This document shows, one piece after another, positions 5,217 through 7,325 of a stretch of DNA of 13,091 nucleotides; the stretch's first letter is position 1, and the number at the start of each line of letters is the position of its first letter. The stretch is from the NCBI GenBank assembly GCA_934317205.1, contig CAKREL010000069.1, positions 1-13,091 of the forward strand, given 5' to 3'. Below the pieces are notes generated by a model. That model was not told the DNA's origin, searched no databases, and was given only the letters and a program-made list of their open reading frames with translations. This DNA comes from an uncultured Eubacterium sp. GTDB taxonomy: Bacteria; Bacillota; Clostridia; Lachnospirales; Lachnospiraceae. Both the position numbers and the translations under genes were made by a program.

Positions 5217-5663
5217 TTAGATATAGTACATACTTTCGTCGTACTTTTCAAATTCCTGATATTCTTTCACCAGATCTGCCAGTGTCAGATTCATCAGAAT
5301 CTGATCCAGCTGACGGTTCACCTCATCAATTACCCGTGTCTGAATGGCCGCTGCAATTCCTTTACAGTCACCCTCTTCTGTCGTATCTCCATCTGCAATG
5401 TGATAAGTTCCATCCAGAGCTTCCAGAATCTCAGCCACAGTAATTTTCTCTGCCGGATGATTCAGCAGATAGCCCCCCTGCGGACCTTTGATACTTTTGA
5501 CAATGCCTGCCCGGCGCAGTGCAGCAAATACCTGCTCCAAATACTGCGGAGAAATATCATTTCGTTCCGCGATGCTGTTTAATGCCACATGTCCGTTTTT
5601 GGAATGTACGGATAAATCGATCAGAGAGGTCAGTCCATATCTGCTTTTTTTCGAAAACTTCAT
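5217..5663 (-). CDS. cymR: Rrf2-family regulator, CymR-like cysteine repressor
   Basis: A 148-residue Rrf2 protein. The winged helix-turn-helix starts MKFSKKSRYGLT, with the recognition-helix region ISPQYLEQVFAALRRAGIV at 37-55 and the wing GPQGGYLL at 60-67. There is a single cysteine (Cys100), so the three-Cys Fe-S site of IscR or NsrR is absent. Length, the N-terminal start and the terminal DESMYYI match Bacillus CymR, which ends in MFYI and represses cysteine uptake and synthesis genes when complexed with CysK. Location between the cysK-metY genes and cysE fits that role. ATG at 5663 follows GGGAGG at a long spacing of about 11 bases. No terminator stands between it and the mnmA promoter. 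The symbol is by homology and context; another Rrf2 subfamily is possible but less likely. Confidence 0.82.
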   Translation of the reverse strand: MKFSKKSRYGLTSLIDLSVHSKNGHVALNSIAERNDISPQYLEQVFAALRRAGIVKSIKGPQGGYLLNHPAEKITVAEILEALDGTYHIADGDTTEEGDCKGIAAAIQTRVIDEVNRQLDQILMNLTLADLVKEYQEFEKYDESMYYI

Positions 5664-5716
5664 TTTTTAAAATACCTCCCATACTCCAATTTTTTAACTT
5701 TATACAAAAATTTCAC

Positions 5717-5899
5717 GATGCCAGGGTCAAAAGCCTGAAACCACGATGTGCTTGCACAGGAGTGGTTTTATGGCTTAATGACCCACCCCGATATGAGCAT
5801 AAAAGTGGAGCGTCAGCTTCACGATATGCGAATATTGGGTAGAATTGTGGGAGTACGAAGTACGGAACAATTCGTAAGGCATCTTTTGACTCCAACATC
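5717..5899. repeat. Structured inverted-repeat element (MITE-like or leader RNA)
   Basis: A 183-base element bounded by imperfect 17-base inverted ends (5717-5733 and 5883-5899, 13 of 17 complementary, including GTCAAAAG/CTTTTGAC). Inside are three hairpins: (1) 5724-5784, GGGTCA/TGACCC, AAGCC/GGCTT, AAACCAC/GTGGTTT with TGTGC/GCACA at the tip; (2) 5786-5839, CCC/GGG, ATAT/ATAT, GCAT/ATGC, GTGGAGC/GCTTCAC; (3) 5842-5873, GAATTGT/ACAATTC with GTAC-GAA-GTAC at the tip. A second closing stem GATGCC/GGCATC (5717-5722, 5878-5883) is possible. The flanks are ATTTCAC (5710-5716) and ATTTTAC (5900-5906), a near direct repeat. It lies 54 bases before cymR. I read it as a small non-coding mobile repeat; a structured cymR leader is the alternative. 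An 89-codon open frame across it is judged spurious. Confidence 0.75.
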
Positions 5900-5960
5900 A
5901 TTTTACTGTTTTTTCTAATGTTTGGATTACAGTAACATTTAATATTTTTATTTAATTTAA
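5900..5960. other. AT-rich spacer with overlapping inverted repeats
   Basis: No gene is seen between the structured element and the sulfhydrylase terminator. Two interleaved inverted repeats occur, TTACTG/CAGTAA (5903-5908, 5930-5935) and AATGTT/AACATT (5917-5922, 5934-5939). They may be an operator or chance in AT-rich DNA. Confidence 0.3.
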
Positions 5961-5990
5961 CAGGCAGATTGCAGTAATACAACCCGCCTG
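5961..5990 (-). terminator. Terminator after O-acetylhomoserine sulfhydrylase
   Basis: Read leftward, CAGGCGGGTTG pairs with CAATCTGCCTG over 11 positions, two of them G-U, around an 8-base loop, about 25 bases past the stop codon. The following tract is AT-rich rather than a pure T run, so termination may be partial. Confidence 0.6.
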
Positions 5991-6014
5991 AATTTCTATA
6001 CTTTTTTCACTTTT

Positions 6015-7325
6015 TTACTGAATTGCTTTGAAAGCTTCATCAAGATCCTGAATGATATCATCCACATTCTCTGTACCGATGGAAAGACGAATTGTGTTTG
6101 GTTTGATTCCCTGATCAGCAAGTTCTTCCGGTGTGCACTGGCTGTGTGTAGTTGTTGCCGGATGGATAACCAGAGATTTTACATCTGCAACGTTTGCAAG
6201 CAGGGAGAATAACTCCAGATTGTCGATGAAATCTTTTGCTTTCTTCTCATCACCTTTGATCTCAAATGTGAAGATAGAACCACCGCCGTTCGGGAAATAT
6301 TTTTTGTATAACGCCTGCTGGCTTGGATCCTCAGATACAGACGGATGATGTACACGCTCTACCTGTGGATGGTTGTTCAAGTACTGAACTACTTTCAGCG
6401 CGTTCTCTACGTGACGCTCTACACGTAAGGACAGTGTCTCAAGTCCCTGTAAAAACAGGAAAGAGTTGAACGGAGAAATGGTTGCTCCTGTATCACGCAG
6501 TAAGATAGCACGGATCTTTGTAACGAAAGCTGCCGGTCCAACTGCTTTTGTGAAGCTGATACCGTGGTAGCTTGGGTTCGGCTCTGTTAAAGAAGCGAAT
6601 TTTCCAGATGCTTCCCAGTCAAATTTGCCACTGTCAACGATAACACCACCGATGCTTGTTCCATGTCCGCCGATGAATTTTGTTGCAGAATGAACAACGA
6701 TATCTGCGCCATACTCAATTGGGCGAACCAGGTATGGTGTTGCAAATGTATTGTCGATCACAAGCGGAATTTTATGCTCATGAGCAATGTTTGCCAGTGT
6801 CTCGATATCTACGACATCAGAGTTCGGGTTACCAAGTGTCTCGATGTAAAGTGCTTTTGTATTGTCCTGAATAGCTGCTTTTACTTCGTCAATGTTGAAC
6901 GGATCTACGAATGTAGTCTCGATACCATACTGTGGAAGTGTATGCTCAAGTAAATTAAAGGAACCACCGTAAATATTTTTAGCTGCTACAATATGGTCAC
7001 CTGCCTGAGCAAGGTTCTCGATTGTATATGTGATAGCTGCTGCTCCGGAAGCTACTGCTAATGCTGCAACGCCGCCTTCCAGTGCTGCCATTCTCTGCTC
7101 AAATACGTCCTCTGTCGGGTTTGTCAGACGTCCGTAAATGTTACCTGCATCTGCAAGTCCGAAACGTGCTGCCGCATGATCGCAGTTACGGAATACATAG
7201 GAAGATGTCTGATAAATCGGTACTGCTCTTGCATCTGTAACCGGATCCGGGTTCTCCTGTCCTACGTGTAACTGTAATGTCTCAAATTTAAAATTTCTGT
7301 CTTTTCTTGCGATTTTCTCTGCCAT
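6015..7325 (-). CDS. metY: O-acetylhomoserine sulfhydrylase
   Basis: A 436-residue PLP enzyme of the Cys/Met metabolism family. It makes homocysteine from O-acetylhomoserine and sulfide, the direct sulfhydrylation route to methionine. The start FETLQLHVGQENPDP is typical of this subfamily, as is the length; cystathionine synthases are nearer 380 residues. The PLP-binding lysine is Lys216 in HSATKF, and IYGRLTNPT (63-71) holds the phosphate-binding Tyr and Arg. I chose ATG at 7325, where the family's conserved start lies (AAAGG 9 bases upstream). A TTG at 7442 would add 39 Gln/Arg-rich residues unlike the family. It lies 152 bases after cysK, probably as the second gene of its transcript. No S-box (SAM-I) riboswitch is visible in the spacer. 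A minor O-acetylserine activity is possible. Confidence 0.93.
   Translation of the reverse strand: MAEKIARKDRNFKFETLQLHVGQENPDPVTDARAVPIYQTSSYVFRNCDHAAARFGLADAGNIYGRLTNPTEDVFEQRMAALEGGVAALAVASGAAAITYTIENLAQAGDHIVAAKNIYGGSFNLLEHTLPQYGIETTFVDPFNIDEVKAAIQDNTKALYIETLGNPNSDVVDIETLANIAHEHKIPLVIDNTFATPYLVRPIEYGADIVVHSATKFIGGHGTSIGGVIVDSGKFDWEASGKFASLTEPNPSYHGISFTKAVGPAAFVTKIRAILLRDTGATISPFNSFLFLQGLETLSLRVERHVENALKVVQYLNNHPQVERVHHPSVSEDPSQQALYKKYFPNGGGSIFTFEIKGDEKKAKDFIDNLELFSLLANVADVKSLVIHPATTTHSQCTPEELADQGIKPNTIRLSIGTENVDDIIQDLDEAFKAIQ

What the first reader, a model, noticed from the sequence alone, without database searches (positions are those of the whole stretch)
5717..5899. Compact 183-base element with three nested hairpins and inverted ends beside cymR
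Almost every base belongs to one of three long hairpins closed by an outer inverted repeat, a cloverleaf-like four-way fold. Two outer stems compete (GATGCC/GGCATC against GTCAAAAG/CTTTTGAC), and the latter also competes with hairpin 1. The 7-base flanks ATTTCAC and ATTTTAC look like an eroded target duplication. This fits a small non-autonomous mobile repeat, or a switching leader RNA for the sulfur regulator. I have a vague memory of similar intergenic repeats in Lachnospiraceae but cannot verify it.
Basis: partly seen in the sequence, partly recalled or inferred. Interest (0 to 1): 0.7.

Follow-up and report, generated by a model that had tools for sequence, protein, structure and literature searches.

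The report
A jumping RNA-shaped repeat beside cymR
A 183-base stretch that databases list as a small RNA gene of unknown function is in fact a tiny jumping DNA element: carrier genomes of one family of gut bacteria hold a dozen to several dozen copies, and two relatives still show the exact empty spot where this copy landed.

Summary
Window 5717-5899 folds with z -9.3 and is Rfam RF01699, Clostridiales-1 RNA (135.9 bits, cut-off 48), an sRNA family of unknown function. It is a dispersed repeat: 13-79 matches in each of 8 genomes picked as carriers, at least one in 215 of 397 Lachnospiraceae genomes, and in 4 of 398 genomes of the phylum, all four also in that family set. Two congeneric genomes, G402 and G417, have a base-exact empty site: TATACAAAA-ATCTTAC-TG against ATTTCAC-[5717-5899]-ATTTTAC here. 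Of 83 usable full-length copies, 34 have an exact 7-bp and 12 an exact 8-bp target duplication; shuffled flanks give 1.9 and 0.2. The ends are about 17-bp inverted repeats. The core covaries (28 of 44 pairs changed on both sides). A cymR leader is not supported. Best reading: a non-autonomous, MITE-like DNA transposon moved in trans by a transposase that I did not find. Unexpected: a second class of the same RNA family lacks the 3' terminal repeat, and 10 of 13 examples start on an upstream ORF's stop codon.

The parts
5710..5716 (+). left target-site duplication ATTTCAC
   Evidence: single ATCTTAC at the empty site in G402 and G417; 6 of 7 identical to the right copy
5717..5899 (+). the whole element: non-autonomous mobile repeat, Rfam RF01699 plus a 3' terminal repeat
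   Evidence: two G002 copies match exactly this extent (query 158-340) at 96-98%
5716..5884 (+). stretch matched by the Rfam Clostridiales-1 model (stops 15 bases short of the element's 3' end)
   Evidence: 135.9 bits, model 1-166 of 166
5717..5733 (+). 5' terminal inverted repeat GATGCCAGGGTCAAAAG
   Evidence: 13 of 17 complementary to the 3' end here, 15 of 17 in G001 (GATGCCAGGGTCAAAAG / GATGTCGGGGTCAAAAG)
5883..5899 (+). 3' terminal inverted repeat CTTTTGACTCCAACATC
5717..5722 (+). 5' strand of the outer stem GATGCC (pairs with 5878-5883 GGCATC)
   Evidence: helix 1
5724..5784 (+). hairpin 1, tip GTGCTTGCAC, closed by GGGTC/GACCC
   Evidence: helices 2-5
5787..5839 (+). hairpin 2 with conserved ATGAG and CGAAT segments
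   Evidence: helices 6-7
5842..5873 (+). hairpin 3 with a purine internal loop GGGA/GGAA
   Evidence: helices 8-9
5900..5906 (+). right target-site duplication ATTTTAC

Best explanation
Window 5717-5899 is one copy of a small non-autonomous DNA transposon (MITE-like) spread through Lachnospiraceae. It has about 17-bp terminal inverted repeats (GATRYC.GGGTCAAAAG) and a structured core listed in Rfam as Clostridiales-1 RNA. It inserts between genes into AT-rich ATWWTAT sites and duplicates 7, sometimes 8, bases. Shown: dispersal, inverted ends, target duplications, precise empty sites, lineage-specific amplification, covarying fold. Inferred: a DDE-type transposase supplied in trans binds the inverted ends and makes a 7-8 bp staggered cut; the folded core is kept because it matters as RNA or as folded DNA. 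Not shown: transcription, the transposase, movement in the laboratory.
For: RF01699 match; 13-79 matches in each of 8 carrier genomes; 215 of 397 family genomes. Exact empty site in G402 and G417; none of the 5 congeneric genomes matching on both sides carries the element there. Exact 7- or 8-bp duplications in 46 of 83 usable copies (27 of 110 dropped for unclear ends), shuffled means 1.9 and 0.2; 11 of 13 in G276; at least one in 28 of 44 sources. Intergenic: 3 of 78 midpoints inside an ORF against 77% of random points. Copies cluster by genome: 18 label changes against a shuffled mean of 45.8 (66 copies, 12 genomes), and five of the 12 genomes hold a pair with identical cores. No orientation bias relative to an assumed origin at position 0: 14 of 28 and 35 of 73, as double-strand transposition predicts.
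Against: No autonomous relative with these ends was found. Among the listed end sites of the single-contig genomes G001, G237, G276 and G396, the outward pairs I examined 0.8-4.2 kb apart enclose ordinary genes such as argC, a glycosidase and an amidohydrolase. Eight of 14 PF01609 matches in G001 have other ends, containing CAGACTGTA, and the rest showed no such ends; PF00872 loci gave none; PF01610 matches occur in 1 of 6 genomes. A covarying core is more than a plain deletion derivative needs. 37 of 83 usable copies lack an exact 7- or 8-bp duplication, the window's own among them (6 of 7).
Confidence: 0.86

Rival explanations
1. It is a regulatory leader or attenuator RNA of cymR and the sulfur genes, switching between two outer stems.
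For: It lies 53 bases upstream of cymR's start; two mutually exclusive outer stems exist; the fold is strong.
Against: The better-folding, Rfam-modelled strand is + and cymR is on -. The element is absent at this site in the five congeneric genomes matching on both sides. 68 copies sit between genes in mixed orientations: 24, 18, 13 and 13.
Confidence: 0.02
2. It is a bacterial SINE-like retroelement: the folded RNA is reverse transcribed at a nicked target.
For: Strong RNA-like fold, the + strand folding better in 34 of 34 copies; ten 5'-truncated copies with an intact 3' end among the end sites that I printed.
Against: Exact duplications are 7 or 8 bp, none of 9-12; inverted ends are not needed for this route; by eye nine of the ten 5'-truncated copies show no duplication (L263 is a possible exception), and four 3'-truncated copies also turned up; reverse-transcriptase domains were not found in 2 of 15 genomes searched, G002 and G050.
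Confidence: 0.05
3. It moves as a single-stranded hairpin (like IS608 ends or integron attC sites), so that the + strand fold is the substrate.
For: The + strand folds better than the - strand in 34 of 34 copies, also with DNA parameters; G-U cells exceed A-C cells 182 to 28 in 108 copies.
Against: Target duplications and inverted ends; no replication-strand bias, 14 of 28 and 35 of 73, if the origin is at position 0. The G-U excess shrinks to 12 to 5 in pairs that both strands predict.
Confidence: 0.06
4. It is an ordinary stand-alone sRNA gene, as Rfam files it, that happens to be duplicated.
For: Rfam type 'Gene; sRNA'; conserved covarying fold; a copy of the second class aligns after the same gene in two species of a genus.
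Against: Exact insertion boundaries, target duplications, genome-specific bursts; the simple scan shows no promoter-like site upstream of it and no terminator-like site.
Confidence: 0.05

Closest known systems
Rfam RF01699 Clostridiales-1 RNA (Weinberg et al. 2010, PMC2864571; passages read)
   Same: Same family: full-length model match at 135.9 bits; listed there as a probable RNA, not cis-regulatory, from Clostridiales and human gut.
   Different: Rfam files it as an sRNA gene; here it is a transposable element with inverted ends and target duplications. The Rfam model stops 15 bases before the element's 3' end.
Bacterial MITEs in general (review PMC10969869, passages read; QMITE2 of Coxiella with 7-9 bp direct repeats)
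   Same: Short, inverted ends, direct repeats, intergenic, folded transcript predicted.
   Different: The core is conserved by compensatory changes among 34 copies of different genomes; no parent insertion sequence found.
Correia/NEMIS, ERIC, BOX, RUP, CIR, YPAL small mobile repeats (PMC2229807 and PMC10969869, passages read; partly recalled)
   Same: Dispersed short repeats, several with RNA folds.
   Different: Most are said to carry a terminal TA motif, and YPAL duplications to vary from 3 to 26 bp; here 7-8 bp at ATWWTAT with GATG ends.
REPIN/RAYT and IS200/IS605 hairpin elements (recalled)
   Same: Hairpins dispersed in many copies.
   Different: Those make no target duplication (recalled); this one does.

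Membership tests
Rfam RF01699 Clostridiales-1 | score above the curated cut-off over the whole model | tested here: met
   135.9 against 48 bits, positions 1-166 of 166
Rfam RF01699 Clostridiales-1 | consensus structure with covariation | tested here: met
   34 copies, 97.3% of cells paired, 28 of 44 pairs with changes on both sides
MITE | short, no transposase gene inside | tested here: met
   183 bases
MITE | terminal inverted repeats | tested here: met
   13 of 17 here, 15 of 17 in G001
MITE | target-site duplication of near-fixed length | tested here: met
   34 of 83 copies 7 bp and 12 of 83 copies 8 bp exact; 11 of 13 in G276
MITE | many dispersed copies and empty sites | tested here: met
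   empty sites in G402 and G417
MITE | ends shared with an autonomous transposon | tested here: inconclusive
   none found with end patterns in ten genomes (list for G003 cut off) and three transposase families; most families not searched
cis-regulatory leader of cymR | on the same strand as, and conserved before, the regulated gene | tested here: not met
   opposite strand; absent there in 5 of 5 congeneric genomes matching on both sides
retroelement (SINE-like) | a reverse transcriptase available in every genome that holds copies | tested here: not met
   PF00078 not found in G002 and G050, 2 of 15 genomes, both with several copies; G002 is a draft assembly and a lost enzyme is possible
IS200/IS605-type or REPIN | no target duplication (recalled) | tested here: not met
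   duplications present

The most novel reading that the evidence does not exclude
The Clostridiales-1 RNA fold is a working part of the mobility system, not a passenger: an RNA that sits between genes of an operon (class II: copy-specific outer stem, starting on a stop codon) and a transposable form (class I: fixed ends, target duplications) are two lifestyles of one RNA, so that a folded RNA or its DNA hairpin controls or guides a transposase encoded elsewhere.
Probability: 0.18. Interest if true: 0.85.

Novelty: new variant of a known kind. Interest (0 to 1): 0.62.

Why it matters
A curated RNA family of unknown function turns out to be a transposable element spread through a major gut bacterial family. 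Annotating it as an sRNA gene mislabels a dozen or more loci in each carrier genome examined, and the repeat may break assemblies, since many pattern hits lie near contig ends. It poses a testable question: why does a MITE-like element carried by 215 of 397 genomes keep a covarying RNA core, and which enzyme moves it? The second, stop-codon-anchored class suggests that the same fold has a role between genes.

Tried and rejected
Leader RNA for cymR: rejected (strand, empty sites, mixed neighbours).

Phage or plasmid element: no plasmid match; one IMG/VR contig; 12 'phage' records, of which the three opened are marked UNVERIFIED and unannotated and may be bacterial DNA.

Autonomous partner: inverted-end patterns in ten genomes (G001, G002, G402, G417; G276, G237, G109, G396, G003, G005, the list for G003 being cut off); relaxed end pairs with duplications in the loci held at the time; PF01609, PF00872 and PF01610 in 3, 5 and 6 genomes. 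An apparent 1,874-base partner in G237 (L277) was an unrelated transposon nested inside a copy. End pairs 0.8-4.2 kb apart in G001 and G276 enclosed ordinary genes.

Retroelement: looked at through truncated copies and reverse-transcriptase domains.

Replication-strand bias: none in class I (8 of 46 G001 end sites left out as atypical; origin assumed at position 0). A bias seen when the 46 G001 matches copied from the cut-off list were pooled (33 of 46) was gone in class I.

G-U against A-C asymmetry: strong on the + strand structure, weak in the control, so I do not rest the case on it.

A CymR scan of viral contigs found nothing. A multi-family literature search returned 0 papers.

Full report
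What is there. Window 5717-5899 folds on the + strand into three hairpins closed by GATGCC/GGCATC (-81.8 kcal/mol, z -9.30, 0 of 200 shuffles as low), less well on the - strand (z -5.5). Rfam recognises 5716-5884 (+) as RF01699, Clostridiales-1 RNA, 135.9 bits against a cut-off of 48, the only gathering-level match in the window. I read passages of Weinberg et al. 2010 (PMC2864571): Table 1 lists it as probably an RNA, probably not cis-regulatory and probably not a switch, from Clostridiales and human gut. The flanking genes, both on the - strand, are an Rrf2-family regulator whose best specific model is CymR, below its cut-off (114 of 195 bits), and an O-acetylhomoserine sulfhydrylase.

It is a dispersed repeat. 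A core pattern hit 75 stretches in the genome collection, many per genome and often near contig ends. A covariance search of eight genomes that I had picked because they carry the pattern gave 79, 40, 48, 34, 26, 16, 13 and 22 matches. In an even draw of the family, 215 of 397 genomes matched and 177 of 397 had a match over the cut-off (strict filters and at most 7 candidates scored per genome, so per-genome counts there are floors). In an even draw of the phylum, 4 of 398 matched, all four being genomes of the family draw; 0 of 14 controls matched in either. The nearest genome to the window that I found is G002, Eubacterium ramulus ATCC 29099 (94-98% identical); it has copies 95-98% identical over all or nearly all of 5717-5899.

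It inserted here. Of 20 genomes of that genus, 15 matched window 5560-6060 somewhere; five (G002, G402, G417, G408, G409) match on both sides of the element and none has it. In G402 and G417 the alignment runs base by base: TATACAAAA-ATCTTAC-TG without the element against TATACAAAA-ATTTCAC-[5717-5899]-ATTTTAC-TG in the window. So the element is exactly 183 bases and duplicated a 7-base target whose two copies now differ at one base. In G002 a larger deletion covers the site, with a short stretch that may be a remnant.

Mobility is general. I collected 110 unique full-length copies with flanks; 83 had clear ends. Exact duplications: 7 bp in 34, 8 bp in 12, 9-12 bp in none; pairing left flanks with other copies' right flanks gives 1.92 and 0.23. 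37 of 83 have no exact duplication of 7-8 bp. The 34 seven-base targets read A-T-W-W-T-A-T. In G276, 11 of 13 elements with both ends show one; at least one copy does in 28 of 44 sources. The ends are inverted repeats: GATGCCAGGGTCAAAAG and GATGTCGGGGTCAAAAG in G001, GATACC... and GATGTT... in G276. Of the 78 copies with enough flank, 3 have their midpoint in an ORF (random points 77%), and neighbours occur in all four orientations. Copies cluster by genome (66 copies, 12 genomes: 18 label changes against a shuffled mean of 45.8, minimum 40), and five of the 12 genomes have a pair with identical cores: recent bursts.

The core is under selection as a fold. I aligned 34 copies from different genomes; three odd loci (L087, L231, L235) were left out beforehand. 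97.3% of cells pair, 28 of 44 pairs have changes on both sides (shuffled 17.6), the covariation score is 0.396 against 0.178, and sliding the partners destroys it (structure). The shuffles do not allow for relatedness. The + strand folds better in 34 of 34. G-U cells outnumber A-C cells 182 to 28 in 108 copies and 34 to 11 in 17 copies below 80% identity; restricted to pairs that both strands predict the ratio is only 12 to 5. So a strand-specific role is likely but not proved. I have no transcript data, and the promoter and terminator scan gives nothing convincing for it.

Mechanism. Inverted ends plus a near-fixed 7-8 bp duplication is the mark of a DDE-type transposase acting in trans (established knowledge of insertion sequences). 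I did not find it. The end sites that I fetched and read lay, by eye, mostly in full, shortened or truncated copies; a few showed little beyond the end itself. Outward end pairs 0.8-4.2 kb apart in G001 and G276 enclose argC, a PTS enzyme, a glycosidase, an amidohydrolase and a metal-dependent repressor, not a transposase. Eight of 14 PF01609 matches in G001 have ends containing CAGACTGTA, and none showed ours; PF00872 loci showed no such ends; PF01610 matches occur in 1 of 6 genomes. Reverse-transcriptase domains were not found in 2 of 15 genomes, which disfavours a retro route. Class I elements show no strand bias relative to replication if the origin is at position 0 (14 of 28, 35 of 73), which disfavours a single-strand hairpin route.

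A second class. Thirteen copies that I noticed in G008, G212, G229, G266 and G340 lack the 3' terminal repeat; their outer stems differ from copy to copy, for instance AGCGATAT/ATATCGCT and AGCAAT/ATTGCT. Ten of 13 start within -4 to +6 bases of the stop codon of an upstream reading frame of at least 80 codons on the same strand; the same test gives 26 of 104 for class I-type copies, no more than on their other strand (26). In seven of 13 a frame of 80 or more codons can start 17-46 bases after the end. One class II copy aligns after the same gene in two species of a genus. Several are followed by a second, 5'-shortened copy that repeats the outer 3' strand. These 13 were not a random sample.

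Novelty. Library searches for Clostridiales-1, RF01699 and related phrases found the 2010 list; of the other papers listed I opened two: one mention is part of an unrelated gene name (PMC4081043), the other is a count among fish cDNAs (PMC3466250); the rest I saw only as listings. Searches for MITEs in Lachnospiraceae and for structured mobile RNAs listed nothing that names it. The 2010 supplement, subscription papers and the Rfam page text were not available to me. So the identification of this RNA family as a transposable element appears new, within a known kind: small structured mobile repeats of bacteria.

Noticed in passing
L231, L087, L102, L339-L344, L348 9558-9714, L349, L350, L232: A second class of RF01699 without the 3' terminal repeat: outer stem sequence differs from copy to copy and 10 of 13 begin on the stop codon of an upstream reading frame.
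   Followed up: partly
L231, L087, L343, L359: Class II copies followed by a 5'-shortened second copy that repeats the outer 3' strand, so that two 3' strands could compete for one 5' strand.
   Followed up: no
L159 (G001 1878600-1879900): Three head-to-tail RF01699 copies with a period of about 156 bases.
   Followed up: no
L310, L322, L325, L335: Mini-derivatives of 69-120 bases with both ends; L310, L325 and L335 show 7-8 base duplications (the last two by eye); L335 has hairpin 1 joined straight to hairpin 3.
   Followed up: partly
L160, L163, L166, L172, L299-L302; also L248, L254, L259: Longer variants of 234-243 bases; some G001 copies carry an extra hairpin next to hairpin 3 (by eye): modular growth.
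   Followed up: no
L277 595-2468: A 524-residue transposase element nested inside an RF01699 copy that keeps its own 7-base duplication; other copies of the transposon lie elsewhere in G237.
   Followed up: partly
window 5716-5884: The Rfam model ends 15 bases short of the element's real 3' end and omits its terminal repeat; the family record could be extended.
   Followed up: yes
PMC3466250, Table 5: Six 'Clostridiales-1 RNA' are reported among elephant shark cDNAs (passage read), presumably contamination or false matches.
   Followed up: no
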